From: Solirubrobacteraceae bacterium
Lineage (GTDB): Bacteria > Actinomycetota > Thermoleophilia > Solirubrobacterales > Solirubrobacteraceae
Direction of reading: 5' to 3'
Length of the DNA: 64,000 nucleotides
Assembly: GCA_017882455.1 (NCBI GenBank)
Contig: JADGPL010000003.1
Coordinates: 1 to 64,000 of the forward strand
Of this stretch, positions 977 through 62,223 are shown one piece after another. The translations under genes and the position numbers were made by a program. The notes under the pieces are model-generated. The model searched no databases and was not told the DNA's origin. It worked only from the letters and a program-made list of their open reading frames with translations. Every line of letters begins with the position of its first letter. The stretch's first letter is position 1.

Positions 977-1927
977 TCAGGAGCCGCGCGGCGCCTTGTC
1001 GATGTCGCGATGCGCGACGGCCACGTCGAGGTCGTCCTGGTCGCGATAGCGCTCCGCCAGGTGCTCGGCGATGGCGACCGAGCGATGCCGCCCCCCGGTG
1101 CAGCCGATCGCGATCACGAGGTGGGCCTTGCCCTCGGCCTCGTACTGGGGCAGCAGGAAGTCGAGCAGCGCGTGCAGGCGGACGTAGAGCTCCTCGAGGC
1201 GCCCGTCGCCTGCGATGTAGTCGACGACGCGCCGATCGAGCCCGGTCAGCTCGCGCAGGCTCGGCTCGTAGTGGGGGTTTGGCAGGAAGCGCACGTCGAA
1301 GGCCAGGTCCTCCTCGCGCGGCGGGCCGTGCTTGAAGCCGAAGCTCATGAAGGTCACGGCCAGCCGGCCTGCGCTCTTGCGCGGAAGGAACTCGCGCGCG
1401 ATCCTCTCGCGCAGCGTCGCCGCCGACATGGCGGTCGTGTCGATCACGAGGTCGGCGCGCTCGCGCAGCGGCTCCAGCAGCGCCCGCTCGGCGGCCACGC
1501 CCGCGGCCACGCTGCCCTCGGGGGCCAGCGGATGACGGCGGCGGGTCTCCTTGTAGCGCGTCACGAGCGTCTGCTCGGCCGCCTCGAGGAAGACCACGTG
1601 GTGGGTCAGGCCGAGGGCGTCCAGATCGTCGACGACCGCTCGCAGCGCCTCGAAGTAGACGCCGCCGCGAACGTCCGAGACGACGGCCGCGCGTTCGACC
1701 TTGGAGCCCTTGTGCACGAACAGCTCGACCAGCGATCTGATCATCTCCGGCGGGAGGTTGTCCACGCAGAAGTAGCCCGCGTCCTCGAACACGTTCATGG
1801 CGGTCGACTTGCCCGCTCCGGAGAATCCGGTGATCACGACCAGGTCCTCCAGCCGCGACTCGACCACCGGCTTGGCGGACTTGCCGCCGGCGGCTCGCAG
1901 CGGACGCAGGGTCCTGATCACTGCCAT
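977..1927 (-). CDS. rapZ: RNase adapter / nucleotide-binding protein RapZ (YvcJ)
   Basis: 316-residue P-loop protein of the RapZ/YvcJ family. Walker A GFSGAGKS is at about residues 34-41, a DVRGG segment near 85 and the conserved C-terminal block GCTGGRHRS near 285. In E. coli RapZ guides RNase E to a small RNA controlling amino-sugar synthesis; in Gram-positives the role is less clear, with nucleotide binding and hydrolysis shown for YvcJ. The length is slightly above the usual 285-300 because of an N-terminal extension of about 25 residues. It follows uvrC on the same strand, as in many Gram-positives, but the usual downstream partners yvcK and whiA are missing and gap comes next. A tandem-repeat block lies in its upstream leader. 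Confidence 0.93.
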   Translation of the reverse strand: MAVIRTLRPLRAAGGKSAKPVVESRLEDLVVITGFSGAGKSTAMNVFEDAGYFCVDNLPPEMIRSLVELFVHKGSKVERAAVVSDVRGGVYFEALRAVVDDLDALGLTHHVVFLEAAEQTLVTRYKETRRRHPLAPEGSVAAGVAAERALLEPLRERADLVIDTTAMSAATLRERIAREFLPRKSAGRLAVTFMSFGFKHGPPREEDLAFDVRFLPNPHYEPSLRELTGLDRRVVDYIAGDGRLEELYVRLHALLDFLLPQYEAEGKAHLVIAIGCTGGRHRSVAIAEHLAERYRDQDDLDVAVAHRDIDKAPRGS

Positions 1928-2033
1928 CGTCGTTCAATTGTGCCGCTTGGCGCGGACACGCGGTGAAGTTCCTGGTGCCTCGTCCAAGTCCCCGTGCAAC
2001 CGGGGTGCTCCGAGATGGTGCGGATTCCTCTCT

Positions 2034-2138
2034 TTCCCGTCGGTGTCTGCCTTCCCGTCGGTGTCTGCCTTCCCGTCGGTGTCTGCCTTCCCGTCGGTGT
2101 CTGCCTTCCCGTCGGTGTCTGCCTTTCCCGTCGGTGTA
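2034..2138. repeat. tandem 18-bp repeat, five exact copies plus a degenerate sixth
   Basis: The unit ttcccgtcggtgtctgcc occurs five times without a mismatch at 2034-2123, then a sixth copy with one inserted T and a diverged end runs to about 2138. The block lies in the 345-bp gap between uvrC (upstream on the minus strand) and rapZ. Because 18 is a multiple of three it keeps several frames open on both strands, which creates long spurious ORFs; none has a credible start or family. Exact copies suggest recent expansion by slippage. Confidence 0.95.
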
Positions 2139-2272
2139 TAACCATGGTGATACAGCAGTGGCAAACGAAGAAGCAGTGGGCACAGGGACAACGACAGACT
2201 GTGCTCGTCTCCCGCCGCGGGCCGCCTCCCTGCAGCGGTCCCCTCCCGTCGCCACCGCCCTGGGAGGACAGC

Positions 2273-4165
2273 TCAGCCGGCTCGATGCAGAAACGCGTAG
2301 AGCTCGCGCCCGACCTTGGCGGGCAGCCCGGGGACGCTCTGCAGTTCCTCGCGCGTGGCTCCCACCATCGCGTCGGGGGAGCCGAAGTGGGCGAGCAGGG
2401 CGCGCTTGCGCGCGGGTCCGACTCCGGGGAGCTCATCGAGCAGGGAGCTCGTCATCGCCTTGTCGCGCCGGCCGCGGTGGTGGGTGATGGCGAAGCGGTG
2501 GGCCTCGTCGCGGACGCGCTGCAGCAGCTGCAGCTCGGGCGTGGAGTGGTCGAGCACCAGCGGCGCGCGGCGCCCCGGGATGAAGACCTCCTCGATCCGC
2601 TTGGCCAGCGAGATGACTGCCACGCCACGGTCGCGGAAGCCCTTCAACGGCCCCATTCCGGCGGCCAGCTGCCCCTTGCCGCCGTCGATCACCACGACGT
2701 TGGGCAGGGCGGCGAAGCTGGGGTCGTAGGCGGGGTCGTGGGGCGAGATGTCGGCCTGGCGCTCCCACTGGGCGAAGCGCCGCGAGAGCACCTCGGCCAT
2801 CGAGGCGAAGTCGTCGGACTCGCCCTCGGCGAGGGAGCGGATCTTGAAGCGGCGGTAGTCGGACTTCTTCGGGGCGCCCCCCTCGAAGACGACCATCGAG
2901 GCGACGGTGTGGGTGCCCCCGAGGTTGGAGATGTCGAAGCACTCGATCCGGATCGGCGGCACGTCCAGCCCGAGCGCCTCCTGCAGCCCGTCGAGGGCCT
3001 CCACGCGGCCCTGGCGGCGACGCTCGGAGCGCAGCTTCTCCTGGTCGAGCGCCAGGCGGGCGTTGCGCTCGGCCAGCTCGAGGATGCGCCGCTTCTCGCC
3101 GCGCTCGGCGGTGCGCAGCTCCACCGGTCCTCCACGACGGCTGGCGAGGGCCTCGGCGAGGACCTCGTGGCCCACGAGGTCGCGCTGGGTGACGAGCAGC
3201 GCGGGAATCGAGATCTGACCGCCGTAGTACTGGAGCATGAACTCCTCCGCCACCTCCCCGAGGTCGCGCTCGGTCTCGTTTGCGAGGTAGAAGGACTGGC
3301 GGTCGGAGAGCACCCCGTCGCGCACCTGGAAGACCTGGGCGTTGGCCTCGCGCCCGTCGATCGCCACGGCGACCGCGTCGAAGGTGCCGACCGACTCGCT
3401 GGTCACGCGACGGCGCTCCAGCAGCGAGCGCACGGCCTGCAGCCGGTTGCGCTCGAGCGTCGCCTGCTCGAACTCCTCCGCGGCGGCCGCCGCCCGCATC
3501 CGCTGCTGGAGGTCGCGCTCGATCGCGGAGAAGCGCCCGGAGAGGAAGTCGATCACCCCGTCGATGCTCTTGCGGTAGTCCTCCTTGGAGACATACCCGA
3601 CACAGGGGGCCTCGCAGCGCTTGATGTAGTAGTCCAGGCACGGGCTGCCGCTGCGCCGGCCGGGCTCGGGCCCGGTGCAGGAGCGGAACATGAAGACCTT
3701 GGCCAGGACCTCGAGCGTTGCGCGGACGCGCTTGGCGTTGGAGTAGGGGCCGAAGTAGGCCCGCGAGCTGCGATGGCGCTCGCGGGTGAAGTACACGCGC
3801 GGGAAGTCCTCGTCGAGGGAGATGGCGATGAACGGATAGGACTTGTCGTCGCGCAGGCGGATGTTGAAGCGCGGGCGGTACTGCTTGATGAAGCTCTGCT
3901 CGGTCAGCAGGGCCTCGGCCTCGGTGGCCACCACCACGCACTCGATGTGCTCCACGCTCGCCACCATCTCGGCGTGGCCGGGACTCGAGGGCACCTGCGC
4001 TTTGGAGAAGTGCGAGGCCACGCGCTTGCGCACGGACTTGGCCTTGCCCACGTAGATCACGCGGCCCTTGCCGTCCCTGAACAGGTACACCCCGGGCTGG
4101 TCGGGCAGGGCGCGGCGCTGGTCAGCGAGGCTCGCGTGCTCGGTGGTCGCTTCGGTGCTCGCCAC
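2273..4165 (-). CDS. uvrC: excinuclease ABC subunit C
   Basis: 630-residue UvrC, the dual-incision nuclease of nucleotide excision repair acting with UvrA and UvrB. An N-terminal GIY-YIG domain starts at PGVYLFRDGKGRVIYVGKAK (about 25-44). It is followed by the Cys-containing region, the UVR motif (about 205-240), the RNase H-like endonuclease core (DISNLGGTHTV near 410, VVIDGGKGQL near 490) and C-terminal helix-hairpin-helix motifs (LPGVGPARKRALL, VPGLPAKVGREL). The start is a GTG at 4165, one base after the stop of the upstream membrane gene, implying coupling. No SOS box is visible ahead of it. Confidence 0.97.
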   Translation of the reverse strand: MASTEATTEHASLADQRRALPDQPGVYLFRDGKGRVIYVGKAKSVRKRVASHFSKAQVPSSPGHAEMVASVEHIECVVVATEAEALLTEQSFIKQYRPRFNIRLRDDKSYPFIAISLDEDFPRVYFTRERHRSSRAYFGPYSNAKRVRATLEVLAKVFMFRSCTGPEPGRRSGSPCLDYYIKRCEAPCVGYVSKEDYRKSIDGVIDFLSGRFSAIERDLQQRMRAAAAAEEFEQATLERNRLQAVRSLLERRRVTSESVGTFDAVAVAIDGREANAQVFQVRDGVLSDRQSFYLANETERDLGEVAEEFMLQYYGGQISIPALLVTQRDLVGHEVLAEALASRRGGPVELRTAERGEKRRILELAERNARLALDQEKLRSERRRQGRVEALDGLQEALGLDVPPIRIECFDISNLGGTHTVASMVVFEGGAPKKSDYRRFKIRSLAEGESDDFASMAEVLSRRFAQWERQADISPHDPAYDPSFAALPNVVVIDGGKGQLAAGMGPLKGFRDRGVAVISLAKRIEEVFIPGRRAPLVLDHSTPELQLLQRVRDEAHRFAITHHRGRRDKAMTSSLLDELPGVGPARKRALLAHFGSPDAMVGATREELQSVPGLPAKVGRELYAFLHRAG

Positions 4166-4545: not shown

Positions 4546-6600
4546 TCAGTCGATCAGCGCCTCCAGGCGCGCGTAGGCGTCCTCGACCGCGCGCTTGGCC
4601 GCTGTGTGCCGCGCTTCGGACTTGGCAGCCTCGTAGCGCGTGGCCCAGGCGGCCGGATCGGCCAGCTCGCCTTCGAGCTCCTTCAGCGACGCCTCGGCCG
4701 CTTCGACCGCCTTCTCGGCCTTCTGCTGGTCGTTGAGTCGGTTCTTGGACGGCCCCTTCGGCTTGGCCCCGCCCTTCGCCCTGGCCTCTCCGGGACCCGA
4801 GCCGTTCCCACCCTCGAGGTCTCTTGCTGTTCCAGCCTGCACATGTGCAGGCTGGCGGAGGGTCGCATGCGACCCTCCGGGGGACCGCGCATGCGCGGTC
4901 CCGGCCGGACCGATCGAAGATCGGCCAACATGTGGGGCCGCCTTCCCGCCCGAAGACCCATTGGACCCCGCCGCCCGCAGCTCGTCGCGCACGCGCACGT
5001 ACTCGGGCCAGCCGCCCTCGTAGCTGCGCAGGGAGCCGTCCTCCACGGCCACCGTGCGCGTGCCCACGGCATCGAGCAGGGCGCGATCGTGGGAGACGAG
5101 CAGGATCGCCCCGGGGAAGGAGCGCAGGGCGTCCTCGAGCGCCTCGCGGCTCTCGATGTCGAGGTGGTTGGTGGGCTCGTCGAGGATCAGGACGTTGGCG
5201 CCGGACTGGACGAGCACGGCCAGGGACAGTCGCCGGCGCTCCCCGCCGGAGAGCCCGCTGAGCGGTTTCTCGGCCTCCTCGCCGGAGAACAGGAAGCGCC
5301 CCAGCAGCGCCCGGGCCTTTCCGGGGCTCAACTTGGTGGCGCTCTGGGTGGCGTCGAGCACGCTCTGGGTGGCCGACCCCCCGGCACCGAGCTCGTCGGC
5401 GTGCTGGGAGAGGTAGCCCACCTTGACGTTGTGCCCCGTGCTCAGTTTCCCCGCCGCCAGCGGACGGCGGCCGGCGAGGGTCTCGATCAGGGTGGTCTTG
5501 CCGGCGCCGTTGGGGCCCACGAGCGAGACGTGCTCGCCGCGCTCCAGCCACAGCTCGGCCTGGTCGAGCAGCACCACCGGGCCGGTGGGCGGCTCGCCGA
5601 TCTCCACGCGCCCCTCGTGCAGCTCGAAGATCACGCGCCCCGTGCGCTCGGGCGCGGCGAACTGGAACTCCAGGCCCTTCTCGTCCTTGGGGTCCCGCTC
5701 GATCCGCTCGATCTTGGCGAGCTTCTTGACCCGGGATTGGGCCTGTTTGGCCTTCGTGGCCTTGTAGCGGAAGCGCTCGATGAAGCGCTCCATCCGCTCG
5801 ATCTCCGCCTGCTGCTTGTCGATCGCCTTGCCCAGGGCCATCTCGCGGGCGGCCTGCTCGCGGCGCCACTGGTGCCAGGTGCCGGCGAAGAAGCGCGAGC
5901 GGCCGGCCTCGAGCTCCAGGACGGCCGTGCCCACGGCCTCGAGGAACCAACGGTCGTGGGCGACGAGCACGATCGCCGCGTCCTGGTCCACGAGCGTCTG
6001 CTCGAGCCACTCCAGGGACTCGATGTCGAGGTGGTTGGTGGGCTCGTCCAGCAGCAGCACGTCCGCGCCCGTGGCCAGCGCCCGCGCGAGCGACGCCCGC
6101 GTGAGCTGCCCCCCGGAGAAGGAGCTGAGCGGACGGTCGAGGTCCCCGTCTCGGAAGCCGAGGCCGTGGGCCATGGCGGTGGCGCGGTTGCGCCACAGGT
6201 AGCCCCCGCGCGCCTCCAGGCGGGCCTGGGCGCCCGCATAGCGCGTGAGGACCGCCTCGTCGCTGTCGCCCTGCGCCATCTTCGCCTCCAGGGCCGCCAG
6301 CTGCGCCTCGATCTCGAGCTCCTCGGCGCACCCCGAGAGCAGGTAGTCGCGCAGCGCCATCCCCCGCTCGCGCGGTGGGCGCTGATCGTGGAGGGCGATC
6401 CGGACGCCCTTGGCCACGCTCAGCTCGCCACGGTCGATCGAGGTCTCCCCCGCGAGCATCCGCAGCAGGGTCGTCTTGCCCGCCCCGTTGCGCCCAGCGA
6501 TCGTCATCCGTTCGCGGCGCTCGAGCTTGAAGGAGACCCCTCGCAGCAGCGGCTGCCCGGCCATGTCCTTGTGCAGGTCTGATGCGATCAGCAGAGCCAT
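4546..6600 (-). CDS. ABC-F family ribosome-associated ATPase
   Basis: 684-residue tandem ATPase without membrane segments, as in the ABC-F translation factors (EttA, Uup, antibiotic-protection proteins). NBD1 has Walker A GRNGAGKTT (about 36-44), signature SFSGGQLTR and Walker B VLLLDEPTNHLD. The inter-domain linker is rich in Arg/Lys (FIERFRYKATKAKQAQSR). NBD2 has GPNGAGKTT, LSGGERRR and VLILDEPTNHLD. A linker near residues 555-605 leads to a C-terminal coiled coil (about 610-684), as in Uup-type members. That linker is encoded by a run of perfect 24-bp palindromes (4832-4936), which looks like an in-frame insertion. The specific substrate or ribosomal state cannot be assigned. Confidence 0.93.
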   Translation of the reverse strand: MALLIASDLHKDMAGQPLLRGVSFKLERRERMTIAGRNGAGKTTLLRMLAGETSIDRGELSVAKGVRIALHDQRPPRERGMALRDYLLSGCAEELEIEAQLAALEAKMAQGDSDEAVLTRYAGAQARLEARGGYLWRNRATAMAHGLGFRDGDLDRPLSSFSGGQLTRASLARALATGADVLLLDEPTNHLDIESLEWLEQTLVDQDAAIVLVAHDRWFLEAVGTAVLELEAGRSRFFAGTWHQWRREQAAREMALGKAIDKQQAEIERMERFIERFRYKATKAKQAQSRVKKLAKIERIERDPKDEKGLEFQFAAPERTGRVIFELHEGRVEIGEPPTGPVVLLDQAELWLERGEHVSLVGPNGAGKTTLIETLAGRRPLAAGKLSTGHNVKVGYLSQHADELGAGGSATQSVLDATQSATKLSPGKARALLGRFLFSGEEAEKPLSGLSGGERRRLSLAVLVQSGANVLILDEPTNHLDIESREALEDALRSFPGAILLVSHDRALLDAVGTRTVAVEDGSLRSYEGGWPEYVRVRDELRAAGSNGSSGGKAAPHVGRSSIGPAGTAHARSPGGSHATLRQPAHVQAGTARDLEGGNGSGPGEARAKGGAKPKGPSKNRLNDQQKAEKAVEAAEASLKELEGELADPAAWATRYEAAKSEARHTAAKRAVEDAYARLEALID
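4832..4936. repeat. cluster A of tandem RCATGY-centred palindromes inside the ABC-F gene
   Basis: Three perfect palindromes abut, with centres exactly 24 bp apart. They are 4832-4855 (left half ccagcctgcaca), 4856-4879 (left half cggagggtcgca) and 4881-4902 (left half gggaccgcgca). Two degenerate members follow: an interrupted hairpin ccgatc-gaa-gatcgg (4910-4924) and an acatgt-centred imperfect palindrome (about 4923-4936). The arms are unrelated to one another; only the central [A/G]CATG[C/T] and the length are shared. The unit is eight codons, so the ABC-F frame stays open and the units encode AH-containing linker octapeptides. Confidence 0.95.
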
Positions 6601-48159: not shown

Positions 48160-48968
48160 GCGTCTCGATCAACTACCACCGCGAGGGCGAGGGCCCAGCG
48201 CTCGTCCTGCTTCACGGCGTGGGCCACCACTGGCAGGCGTGGCGTCCGGTCATAGACCTGCTCGCCGGGGAGTTCGACGTGATCGCCTGCGACTCGCCGG
48301 GCTTCGGACGCTCGGCCCCCCTGTCGGCGGGCATCGAGCCGACGATCCCCAACTACGTCGACGCCTTCGAGTGGTTCTTCGCCGAGATCGGCCTCGAGCG
48401 CCCACACGTGGCGGGCAACTCGATGGGTGGCGCGATCACGCTGGAGCTCGCCCGCAGGCGCGCGATCGCCTCGGCCACGGCGTTCTCGCCGGCCGGCTTC
48501 TGGACGGCCGCCGAGCGGCGCTTCTGCCAGCTCTCGCTGCGGGCCGTCGGCAGCATCCCCCCTGCGGCCCGTCCCGCGATCGAGGCACTCGCGCGCACGC
48601 GCGGCGGGCGCGTGGCGCTCTTCTCCCAGAACTTCGGCTACCCGACACGTATGCCGGCGGAGGAGGCGGTGGCGACGCTGCGCGACGCGTGGAGCGCGCC
48701 TGCGCTGGCGGGCGCGCTGGCGGCCTTCGATCGCTACAGCTTCCAGGCGCCCGAGCAGCTGCGTGCCACGCCTGTGACGATCGCCTGGGGACGCCGTGAC
48801 AGGCTCCTGCCCTACCGGCTGCAGGCGCCGCGTGCGCGGGCGATGCTCCCGTGGGCCACCCACGTGACCCTCGGTGCCGGTCATGTGCCGTTCTTCGACG
48901 ACCCTGCGGCCGTGGCAGAGGTGATCCGCGCCTGCGCGGGCTCGGCCGTGGCACCGGCGCGCCGCTAG
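48156..48968 (+). CDS. alpha/beta hydrolase
   Basis: 270 residues. Oxyanion LLHGVGHHWQAW, nucleophile AGNSMGGAITLELAR (Ser near 90), Asp in WGRRDRLLP and His in GAGHVPFFDDP form a complete triad. In context it could hydrolyse the ester or lactone made by the upstream monooxygenase. Overlap with the GMC gene and tight spacing argue for one transcript across 45.0-49.0 kb. Confidence 0.93.
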   Translation: MSVSINYHREGEGPALVLLHGVGHHWQAWRPVIDLLAGEFDVIACDSPGFGRSAPLSAGIEPTIPNYVDAFEWFFAEIGLERPHVAGNSMGGAITLELARRRAIASATAFSPAGFWTAAERRFCQLSLRAVGSIPPAARPAIEALARTRGGRVALFSQNFGYPTRMPAEEAVATLRDAWSAPALAGALAAFDRYSFQAPEQLRATPVTIAWGRRDRLLPYRLQAPRARAMLPWATHVTLGAGHVPFFDDPAAVAEVIRACAGSAVAPARR

Positions 48969-49002
48969 TGTTCCGGCCGGGACGGGCACCTGTACCGGCC
49001 GG

Positions 49003-49099
49003 CGGGGCCGCACATGTGCGGCCCCGAGACACGCCGCATGCGGCGTGTCTACCGATCGGCGCATGCGCCGATCGGCGGGAGCGTGCATGCACGCTCCCG
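49003..49099. repeat. cluster B of tandem RCATGY-centred 24-bp palindromes
   Basis: Four perfect 24-bp palindromes: 49003-49026 (left half cggggccgcaca), 49027-49050 (agacacgccgca), 49052-49075 (ccgatcggcgca) and 49076-49099 (cgggagcgtgca). They are contiguous except for a single spacer base at 49051. Centres are acatgt, gcatgc, gcatgc and gcatgc. A ccggccgg...ccggccgg element (48973-49002) precedes them, as a ccggccgg also accompanies cluster A. The cluster fills the gap between a hydrolase gene and the convergent cutinase gene. Confidence 0.96.
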
Positions 49100-51822: not shown

Positions 51823-51905
51823 CCAGAGCTGAAAAAGGCAAACCCGTCGTGAGACGGGGGCGCAAAGTCAGAGATCTCGATGAGATAGCTCGGCTGCCAG
51901 GAAAG
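51823..51905 (+). promoter_or_regulatory. cyclic di-GMP-I (GEMM) riboswitch
   Basis: The aptamer landmarks occur in order. aaaaaGGCAAACC (51832-51844) is followed by a stem closed by a GTGA tetraloop (cccgtc-gtga-gacggg). GGCGCAAAGTC comes next (51859-51869, consensus GACGCAAAGCC), then a second stem (atctc-gat-gagat) and AGCTCGGCTGCC (51887-51898). gagct and agctc can close the outer helix. It ends about 12 nt before the ggagg of the pilin gene, so control is probably at translation initiation. Confidence 0.88.
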
Positions 51906-51920
51906 CCACGGGAGGCTATC

Positions 51921-52433
51921 GTGCTGTCAGAGTCATCAGATCGCAGTTCCAGGACACCGCAGCTCCGAGGAACGCTCCTCGCCGGCAGGCTTTGGCGGAG
52001 CGTGAGCGACGAGAGCGCCTTCACGCTGACCGAGCTGCTGGTGGTCATCCTCATCATCGGCATCCTCGCGGCGATCGCCGTGCCCTCGTTCCTGAGCACC
52101 ACCTCCAAGGCCGTCGACGCGCAGGCCAAGGAGCTCGTTCGCACCGCAGAGACCACGGCTGAGACGCTCGGGGCAATGGACAGCGGCAGCTACGAAAGGG
52201 TGAGCACGACCGAACTCAACAAAGAGGAACCGACGATACGTATATCGCCCAGCACGAGGGAAGCGTATTTGAGCGCTGCGACCAGCGCGAAGAACAGCTA
52301 CTCGCTCACGGTCAAAGCGACCAATGGCGACGAATTCACGGTCAGCAGAAGCGTGAACGGCGTGCTCAGTCGCACGTGCGCGAGCCCTGTCAGCAAGAAG
52401 GGCTGCGGTGGAGGAGAAACCTCCACCTGGTGA
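51921..52433 (+). CDS. type IV pilin-like protein
   Basis: 170 residues from the GTG at 51921, 6 nt after ggagg. A long leader of about 33 residues ends at SDESA, then FTLTELLVVILIIGILAAIA, the class III pilin helix with Glu at +5. The -1 residue is Ala rather than Gly. A globular domain follows with a C-terminal Cys pair (SRTCASPVSKKGCGG), as in pilin D-loops. The c-di-GMP riboswitch directly upstream ties pilus production to the second messenger. No prepilin peptidase or assembly ATPase is nearby. Confidence 0.88.
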   Translation: MLSESSDRSSRTPQLRGTLLAGRLWRSVSDESAFTLTELLVVILIIGILAAIAVPSFLSTTSKAVDAQAKELVRTAETTAETLGAMDSGSYERVSTTELNKEEPTIRISPSTREAYLSAATSAKNSYSLTVKATNGDEFTVSRSVNGVLSRTCASPVSKKGCGGGETSTW

Positions 52434-52777: not shown

Positions 52778-54022
52778 TCACTCGCTCGGCGCACGCGCGC
52801 CCAGCCAGTGGACGATCTCCAGCGCCAGTCCCACCTGCAGTCCTCGGTGCTCGAGCGGAGCCGGAAGCAGCTCGCGCGCGCGAGCGAGCCGATTGAGGAC
52901 CGTGTTGCGGTGGGCATAGAGGGCGCGGGCGGCACGCGAGGCGCTGAACTCCTCGCGGATGTAGACCCGCAGCGTCTCGCGCAGATCCGCATCTGCGCCG
53001 GTGAGCTCTCCGAGCGTTCGCGAGACGAACTCCCACGCGCCGTCCTCGTCCTGGGCTGAGAGCGCCACCAGTTGCACGTCCTCGTAGCTGGCGATGCGCA
53101 GGTTCCCGGGCATGCGATGCATCAGGCGCTGAGTGGCCAGCGCGTCGAGATGACCGCGACGAAAGCCCTCCATGCCGGTGGCGGTCGAGCCGAGAGCGAT
53201 CCGCACACCGGGACTGCCCTGGAGGTGGGAGCGCACAGCATCGAGGTCCGGCTCCTGCGAGCCCGCGTACCAGACCCACAGCGAGCGGGTGCTGCCCACG
53301 ACCGTGAACGGGCTGCGGGCGCCCGCAGCCCGCGCGAGCGCGTCGGCGGCCCGCTCCAGCTCGCCCTGGTCGGACACCTCGGCCTCGCTCCACACCACCG
53401 CCGCGGTATGGCGTCGGGACATCTCGTAGCGCAGTCGCGCGCTGGCGCGAGCGCTCGTGATCGGCGCGCCCTCGAGAACCAGGTTGACGGTCTCGAGACG
53501 CTCGGCGTGGGTGCCACGCACGAGTTGCTCGCGCTCGCGGTCGATCAGCTCCTGGAGCCCGGCGACCGTCTCATCGACGAAGGCGAAGATCGAGCGGGAG
53601 GTGACGTCGAGCAGCTCCCGCAGCTCATCGGGGTCATCGGTCAAGGTGAACGCGCGGCTCATCCAGGCGCGCCACGCCACGTTCTGGCCGATCCGGTAGA
53701 TGTTGAGCGTCGTGTCGTCGAGCCCGCGGCGCACGATGTCGCGAGCCAGGTCCAGCACCTGCGGGCTGAGGTTGGCCGGCACAGGGGCTCCGGGACGGCG
53801 CACGTTGGCGCTCGCCCAGTGCAGGATGTTGGCGTGGTCGGTGGCGATGGTGGCGGCGGTGATCGTCGGGTCATCGGAGAGCCTGCGAGGCGCGGCGGCC
53901 AGCACGGCCGCGTCGACCTCTCCGAAGAGCGCGTCGGGATCCTCGATCAGGGTGCTCGCGCCGGCACGGATGAGGGCGGCTATGCGCTCTGGCGGCGGCT
54001 CCCAGTTGGTCGCGACTGACAT
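52778..54022 (-). CDS. PucR/CdaR family transcriptional regulator
   Basis: 414 residues. An N-terminal helical sensor-like domain is followed by a GGDEF-like central domain (about 190-300). The C-terminal PucR helix-turn-helix reads LRVYIREEFSASRAARALYA followed by HRNTVLNRLARARELL. Such regulators often control adjacent catabolic or stress genes. The start is the ATG at 54022; the monooxygenase gene lies divergently, with an inverted repeat between. It is the probable regulator of that monooxygenase. Confidence 0.9.
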   Translation of the reverse strand: MSVATNWEPPPERIAALIRAGASTLIEDPDALFGEVDAAVLAAAPRRLSDDPTITAATIATDHANILHWASANVRRPGAPVPANLSPQVLDLARDIVRRGLDDTTLNIYRIGQNVAWRAWMSRAFTLTDDPDELRELLDVTSRSIFAFVDETVAGLQELIDREREQLVRGTHAERLETVNLVLEGAPITSARASARLRYEMSRRHTAAVVWSEAEVSDQGELERAADALARAAGARSPFTVVGSTRSLWVWYAGSQEPDLDAVRSHLQGSPGVRIALGSTATGMEGFRRGHLDALATQRLMHRMPGNLRIASYEDVQLVALSAQDEDGAWEFVSRTLGELTGADADLRETLRVYIREEFSASRAARALYAHRNTVLNRLARARELLPAPLEHRGLQVGLALEIVHWLGARAPSE

Positions 54023-61839: not shown

Positions 61840-61862
61840 GGGGTTCGCACATCGAGTCGCCA

Positions 61863-62223
61863 TGGAGACGGTGGGAATCGAACCCACGTCCGCGATCGCA
61901 TGAGAATGGCTTCTACGAGCGTAGCCGGCGCTCTGATCTCGTCCCCCACTCGCCTCGCCGGCGGGGTTATGGGGGACCAGCCTCCTAGATTTCCCCGACT
62001 TGGCGGAAGCGGACCGCGTCGGGTGAGCCTGCTTTCTGATCCCGGCCTTCCCCGCCGCAGGCAAGCGGGGCCCGAGACCTCACGGCTTAGCTATTGACTA
62101 AGCGGCGAGGGCGTACTCGTGAGAGTCCGCACTTATGTTTTTCCCGGGTGTTTTACGAGGCCGCCCGGGACCTCGACTCGCCACCACCCCCACGAACCGA
62201 CCACGTCGAAGCCTGTCGTCCCC
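61863..62223 (-). ncRNA. ssrA: transfer-messenger RNA (tmRNA)
   Basis: Single-piece tmRNA of about 361 nt; it rescues stalled ribosomes with SmpB. The 5' end GGGGACG (62223-62217) pairs with CGTCTCC (61870-61864) as the acceptor stem, and a T arm GTGGGTTCGATTCCCAC lies next to it. CCA is not encoded. The resume frame at 62130-62101 encodes ADSHEYALAA followed by TAG. The ADSH start and ALAA end are typical of actinobacterial tags, though this one is short. Pseudoknot-forming GC stems surround the frame. Confidence 0.96.

What the first reader, a model, noticed from the sequence alone, without database searches (positions are those of the whole stretch)
49003..49099. Second cluster of the same palindrome family in a convergent gap
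Four perfect 24-bp palindromes, three of them with gcatgc and one with acatgt at the centre, are packed with a single spacer base. None of the arms matches cluster A, yet length, core and tandem order are the same. Both clusters are accompanied by ccggccgg and a nearby tgttcc. Two independent loci make chance implausible and point to a mobile or processed palindromic element. A protein recognising RCATGY, or an RNA of chained hairpins, are testable ideas.
Basis: partly seen in the sequence, partly recalled or inferred. Interest (0 to 1): 0.85.

Follow-up and report, generated by a model that had tools for sequence, protein, structure and literature searches.

The report
Soil-bacterial arrays of self-maintaining palindromes
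The cluster is one of about two dozen copies in this soil bacterium (Solirubrobacterales) of a DNA element built from three or more 24-letter palindromes in a row, whose two halves keep changing together so that they stay perfect mirror images, even where the element sits inside essential genes.

Summary
The four palindromes at 49003-49099 are exact. The 'ccggccgg' and 'tgttcc' beside them are a fifth, decayed unit (48973-49002) with its conserved TGTT flank. The genome holds about 24 such arrays. I catalogued 91 in about 24 related Solirubrobacterales MAGs; 395 other genomes of the phylum, viral contigs and plasmids gave none. Units are 10-bp stems capped by a nearly invariant CATG tetraloop (RCATGY), almost always three or more in a row, in three arm types with preferred order A-B-C. 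Arms differ widely, yet 99.1% of internal pairs are Watson-Crick. Changes between orthologous arrays are mostly paired (217 paired, 42 one-sided), with no G-T excess and frequent transversions. Many arrays keep their position across species. This argues against a terminator or duplex-DNA operator as general function. Best reading: a new family of REP/RPE-like interspersed palindromic elements, dispersed long ago by an unknown agent (RAYT-type transposase in only 1 of 24 genus genomes; GTAG/CGTC tags rare), inherited mainly vertically, with palindromy renewed at DNA level, plausibly by hairpin-primed template switching. That last step is inferred.

The parts
48969..48972 (+). TGTT flank, the conserved left-end motif of the arrays
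   Evidence: Direct reading; flank consensus GCTGTT before the first unit
48973..49002 (.). Decayed first unit (type A): CCGGCCGG stem arms around gacgggcacctgta
   Evidence: (covariance-model hit 48973-49050, 73 bits)
49003..49026 (.). Unit B, perfect 24-bp palindrome CGGGGCCGCA-CATG-TGCGGCCCCG
49027..49050 (.). Unit C, perfect 24-bp palindrome AGACACGCCG-CATG-CGGCGTGTCT
49052..49075 (.). Unit A, perfect 24-bp palindrome CCGATCGGCG-CATG-CGCCGATCGG
49076..49099 (.). Unit B', perfect 24-bp palindrome CGGGAGCGTG-CATG-CACGCTCCCG
   Evidence: covariance-model hit 49027-49099, 81 bits
47739..48968 (+). ORF with alpha/beta hydrolase domain; stop codon ends 4 bp before the decayed first unit (true start probably near 48160)
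   Evidence: PF12697, 82.5 bits
49121..49978 (-). Cutinase-family gene, convergent
   Evidence: PF01083, 76 bits
4828..4831 (+).
4832..4903 (.). Three units (4832-4855, 4856-4879, 4880-4903; the third has an unpaired outer base), in frame in the ABC-F gene
4904..4926 (.). Probable decayed fourth unit (CCGATC-GAA-GATCGG)
   Evidence: tentative
4546..6600 (-). ABC-F ATPase gene (684 aa) whose linker after the second ABC domain is partly encoded by the array
   Evidence: (NF000355, 401 bits)

Best explanation
The feature is one copy of a lineage-restricted family of interspersed palindromic arrays, REP/RPE-like DNA elements. Each is a block of three (up to six) abutting hairpin units with a 10-bp stem of largely free sequence and a CATG tetraloop. 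Because CATG and the R-Y closing pair are self-complementary, both DNA strands offer the same hairpins, so the element reads alike in either orientation. SHOWN: dispersal, shared order and ends, in-place inheritance across species, near-absolute pairing despite arm turnover, almost no wobble pairs, copies in frame inside two conserved genes. INFERRED: (1) an ancestral A-B-C block spread through the genome by an unknown, perhaps lost, machinery, possibly one acting on folded single-stranded DNA; (2) afterwards copies were mainly inherited and occasionally lost; (3) perfect palindromy is restored after each mutation at the DNA level, most simply because the nascent strand folds back at the CATG hairpin and copies its own arm (template switching at quasipalindromes), so arms drift as pairs. 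The conserved loop suggests that something still recognises it or that it favours the fold-back.
For: About 24 arrays in the own genome; 91 unique arrays, size 3 in 61, junctions mostly 0 bp (166 of 213); preferred A-B-C order and GCTGTT/TTCC ends. Isolated units: 1 against 48 in arrays. Pair count on the model alignment: 57 double-sided changes against 14.3 in shuffles, collapse on sliding the register. Internal pairs 99.1% Watson-Crick, G-T plus A-C 0.33%. Orthologous units: 217 paired against 42 one-sided differences, 99 of the 217 transversions. Orthologous arrays with turned-over arms in up to six species. In-frame copies: ABC-F linker in 6 species, LeuRS linker in 4. Only 4 units in register with a loop other than CATG, each one base away from it, with 9 or 10 of 10 stem pairs. 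Precedent for template switching restoring palindromes: PMC7202029, PMC8794818, PMC6649704.
Against: No transposition event, empty site at base resolution or mobilising protein was found. Selection for a DNA or RNA hairpin with strong compensatory evolution gives much the same pattern as template-switch correction; nothing here separates them formally. The invariant CATG loop needs recognition or some other constraint that correction alone does not supply. Patchy presence in leuS (G007 apart from G013/G019/G021) could be repeated insertion rather than loss. Orthologue comparisons are not independent of each other.
Confidence: 0.55

Rival explanations
1. RNA hairpin arrays: bidirectional transcription terminators or 3'-end mRNA stabilisers placed after genes, kept by selection for RNA pairing.
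For: Strong hairpins (RNA z-score -9.2); arrays lie close behind stop codons (co-directional median 27.5 bp after the stop against 53.5 bp before the next start; convergent medians 13 and 11) and are rare in divergent gaps (8 of 67 against 84 of 303 gaps); position conserved across species.
Against: In frame in the middle of leuS and near the end of an ABC-F gene; no orientation rule and no T-run consensus; G-T not tolerated more than other mismatches; 46% of paired changes are transversions, which skip wobble intermediates. Depletion upstream of promoters is also expected for tolerated insertions.
Confidence: 0.2
2. Still-active mobile element moved by an unidentified single-strand transposase.
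For: Dispersed ordered block with shared ends; patchy presence between close species, e.g. the ABC-F array in G000 but not G022; array number varies from none to many within one genus.
Against: No near-identical copies within genomes and hardly any within-species homogenisation (arm identity within against between species 6.41 against 6.13, 6.90 against 6.67, 6.02 against 6.35 of 10); RAYT-type Y1 transposase in only 1 of 24 genus genomes, with no family palindromes in its 3.4-kb locus; many arrays inherited in place.
Confidence: 0.17
3. Cluster of operator sites for a dimeric duplex-DNA-binding protein (nucleoid or chromosome-organising protein) reading RCATGY.
For: Near-invariant, two-fold symmetric YRCATGYR centre.
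Against: Arm positions 1-6 vary freely yet covary as base pairs, which duplex recognition does not require; junctions of -1, 0, 1 and 2 bp break helical phasing; loop variants occur that are no longer symmetric while the stem stays paired.
Confidence: 0.06
4. Chance or assembly artefact.
For: None found.
Against: Counts far above background; orthologous arrays in MAGs from different projects.
Confidence: 0.01

Closest known systems
Rickettsia palindromic elements (RPE) and CGTC-tagged repeats
   Same: Interspersed palindromic DNA found between genes and in frame inside conserved protein genes, without a dedicated transposase (PMC2229807, PMC3733652).
   Different: Here 24-bp units with CATG loop in arrays of three or more, CGTC near only 3 of 91 arrays, arms free, and palindromy maintained, whereas RPE are reported to lose repeat identity with time (PMC6649704).
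REP/BIME elements with RAYT (TnpA-REP)
   Same: Short hairpin units, mostly intergenic, behind genes, grouped, sometimes intragenic (PMC3733652, PMC8266576).
   Different: GTAG near only 4 of 91 arrays, no Y1 transposase in the own genome and one in 24 genomes of its genus; head-to-tail runs of three different perfect palindromes instead of tagged singletons or dimers.
Coding palindromes of Nematomorpha mitochondria
   Same: Perfect inverted repeats inside protein genes, changing between species while the arms stay identical; template switching proposed (PMC6649704).
   Different: There up to 284 bp long and scattered in mitochondrial genes; here a defined sequence family with fixed unit length, fixed loop and ordered arrays in a bacterial chromosome.
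Template-switch-maintained hairpins
   Same: Compensatory changes arising in one step, enriched for 4-nt loops (PMC8794818).
   Different: Described for rRNA stems; here dispersed, partly coding, non-rRNA elements.

Membership tests
REP (GTAG class, RAYT-mobilised) | Terminal GTAG tag | tested here: not met
   GTAG within 12 bp of an end in 4 of 91 arrays; consensus ends are GCTGTT and TTCC
REP (GTAG class, RAYT-mobilised) | RAYT/Y1 transposase gene in the genome, flanked by the repeats | tested here: not met
   PF01797: none in the own genome, 1 of 24 in the genus, locus without family palindromes
REP (GTAG class, RAYT-mobilised) | Short palindromic units dispersed mainly between genes | tested here: met
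RPE / CGTC class | CGTC tag at one end | tested here: not met
   3 of 91 arrays
RPE / CGTC class | In-frame insertion in conserved protein genes | tested here: met
   ABC-F and LeuRS
MITE | Terminal inverted repeats | tested here: not met
   The two ends differ and no end-to-end inverted repeat is seen in the flank consensus
MITE | Target-site duplication | tested here: inconclusive
   Flanking DNA of species without the array is too diverged to place the junctions
Intrinsic terminator | Hairpin followed by a T-run at the end of a transcription unit | tested here: not met
   No T-run in flank consensus; copies inside ORFs
Any Rfam RNA family | Match above gathering score | tested here: not met
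   Only tmRNA and a c-di-GMP riboswitch match in the window

The most novel reading that the evidence does not exclude
A genomic element that persists because its own shape directs its repair: strand-symmetric CATG-capped hairpins whose arms are rewritten to perfect complementarity after each replication error, so sequence drifts but structure does not, in intergenic DNA and inside essential genes alike, with an unknown factor reading the CATG loop.
Probability: 0.3. Interest if true: 0.82.

Novelty: new variant of a known kind. Interest (0 to 1): 0.66.

Why it matters
Whether perfect palindromes in bacterial genomes are kept by selection or by a mutational copying process is an open question. 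This family offers many natural replicates per genome with turnover between species, including copies in protein-coding genes where RNA or DNA signals have no obvious place, so the two views can be tested. It also adds an in-frame protein-coding palindromic element in a lineage far from Rickettsia, placed in the linker of leucyl-tRNA synthetase.

Tried and rejected
Duplex operator and terminator readings: see rivals. RAYT association: rejected. Hymenobacter hit of the pattern scan (L225): chance, no palindrome there. Viral contigs and plasmids: no match. Within-species homogenisation as a sign of recent spread: weak or absent. Tandem duplication as the recent origin of adjacent units: adjacent units are no more alike than units of different arrays (4.63 against 4.90 of 10). 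Gene calls 'inside' in L117, L199 and L211 look like ORF-calling noise and were not counted. Exact empty-site boundaries at the window locus (species G022) could not be placed because the gap is too diverged. The excess of 9-bp spacers was an artefact of gapped alignment rows and was removed. Literature searches for this element in Solirubrobacter or Thermoleophilia found no description, within an open-access library only.

Full report
OBSERVATION. The four palindromes are exact and lie where stated. There is one spacer base, at 49051; the other junctions abut. The gap lies between convergent genes of the alpha/beta-hydrolase and cutinase families. The neighbouring ccggccgg and tgttcc are part of the same array: 48969-49002 is TGTT followed by a unit whose arms survive (CCGGCCGG twice) but whose centre was replaced. 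The array is therefore A(decayed)-B-C-A-B.

A FAMILY, NOT A PAIR. A blastn search of the own genome (3.31 Mb, 51 contigs) with the array found many relatives. In 1.175 Mb of sampled sequence, 39 RCATGY sites had nine of nine outer pairs and 10 had eight, then a gap to background; seven other palindromic cores gave 0-2 with nine. A covariance model of the three-unit block finds about 24 separate arrays in the genome. In relatives it hits 18 of 23 other genomes of the genus and one of 13 from other genera of the family, but none of 24 from other families of the order and none of 395 other genomes drawn from the phylum; the large searches use stricter filters and may lose weak matches. A pattern scan of 84,980 species genomes gave 54 stretches in MAGs labelled Solirubrobacterales, Solirubrobacteraceae or Actinomycetes, and one chance hit.

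ANATOMY. Ninety-one unique arrays were read: 61 have three units, 21 four, five five, one six, three two. Junctions are 0 bp in 166 cases, 1 bp in 20, -1 in 16. Isolated units are almost absent (1 against 48 in the sample). Units fall into three arm types by positions 7-10 (A GGYR, B CGYR, C GYCR or similar), most often in the order A-B-C, with flanks GCTGTT before A and TTCC after C. Positions 1-6 vary widely. Both RNA and DNA folding give chained hairpins of 10 bp with a CATG loop (z -9.2 and -9.7). Because RCATGY is its own complement, each strand shows the same loop. Four units adjoining arrays have loops one base from CATG (CGTG, CACG twice, CTTG) with 9 or 10 of 10 stem pairs, so the stem, not the symmetry of the centre, is the robust part.

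HOW IT EVOLVES. In the model alignment, 20 of 30 pairs show changes on both sides and 57 cells are double changes, against 14.3 in shuffles; sliding the register abolishes pairing. Over all units, internal pairs (arm positions 2-10) are 99.1% Watson-Crick; G-T and A-C together are 0.33%, the other mismatches 0.55%. Wobble pairs are thus not favoured, unlike what RNA-level selection would be expected to give. Arrays at orthologous places in two to six species have largely exchanged their arms while remaining palindromic; aligned units with at most three changed positions show 217 paired against 42 one-sided differences, and 99 of the paired changes are transversions. These comparisons share branches, so the numbers are descriptive. 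Copies within a genome are about as different as copies in different genomes, so recent amplification is not seen.

INSIDE GENES. Six species carry an array there, eleven others do not, and the encoded linker reads AHA-rich repeats. A second case was found in leucyl-tRNA synthetase (TIGR00396, 777-785 bits): four species (G007, G013, G019, G021) have three units in frame in the linker before RKAHWAI, where sixteen others have none. Units of 24 bp are eight codons, so whole units keep the frame. A tree of both proteins shows patchy presence at both sites, read here as ancestral insertion with losses in the ABC-F case (the middle unit stays recognisably alike) and undecided for leuS. A terminator or a promoter-side signal is hard to defend in the middle of an essential gene.

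CONTEXT. Of 67 intergenic arrays with both neighbours called, 48 lie between co-directional genes, 11 in convergent and 8 in divergent gaps; background gaps are 178, 41 and 84. Arrays sit nearer to upstream stop codons than to downstream starts. This resembles REP elements and can reflect either tolerated insertion or an mRNA role. Gene calls are from a simple codon-usage caller and are approximate.

MECHANISM. The data ask for base-pairing between arms to be what is preserved. Three ways are possible: selection on an RNA hairpin, selection on a folded single DNA strand, or continual rewriting of one arm from the other during replication. RNA selection is disfavoured by the wobble result and by the intragenic copies. 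The rewriting model has laboratory precedent at quasipalindromes in E. coli (PMC7202029) and comparative precedent in rRNA stems, where 4-nt loops are enriched among one-step compensatory changes (PMC8794818), and has been proposed for Nematomorpha mitochondrial genes (PMC6649704). It is the simplest account of equal intolerance to all mismatches, but the strict conservation of CATG shows that some recognition or fold-back constraint also acts. How the blocks first spread is unknown. A Y1 transposase is absent from the own genome and found in one of 24 genus genomes, in a locus without family palindromes.

KNOWN KINDS. The element works like REP and RPE repeats, but it is not filed as either: the GTAG and CGTC tags and the RAYT were tested and not met. 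RPE are described as losing repeat identity (PMC6649704), the opposite of what is seen here. No prior description was found in the papers searched, which covers open-access text only.

VERDICT. A real, lineage-restricted family of interspersed palindromic arrays; a new variant of a known kind, with an unusual mode of maintenance that can be tested.

Noticed in passing
window 51828-51902 (+): c-di-GMP-I-GGC riboswitch aptamer (RF03167, 68.3 bits) at the 5' end of ORF 51849-52433, whose protein carries a type IV prepilin-like segment (FTLTELLVVILIIGILAAIAVPSF): probable c-di-GMP control of a pilin-like gene.
   Followed up: no
window 61860-62223 (-): tmRNA gene (RF00023, 173 bits).
   Followed up: no
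window 53309-53332: Isolated perfect 24-bp palindrome with GGCGCC core inside an ORF; not a member of the family.
   Followed up: no
L233 (species G006) 1486-3311: IS200/IS605-type pair (Y1 transposase and TnpB-like gene), in the only genus genome where a Y1 transposase was found, without family palindromes nearby.
   Followed up: partly
L112 1477-1620 (species G009): Array of six perfect units, the longest seen, with a further unit whose loop is CACG beside it.
   Followed up: no
L105 (genus g2, species G024) and L185: Arrays at an orthologous place in a second genus and in a MAG from another project, so the family predates the split of at least two lineages.
   Followed up: partly
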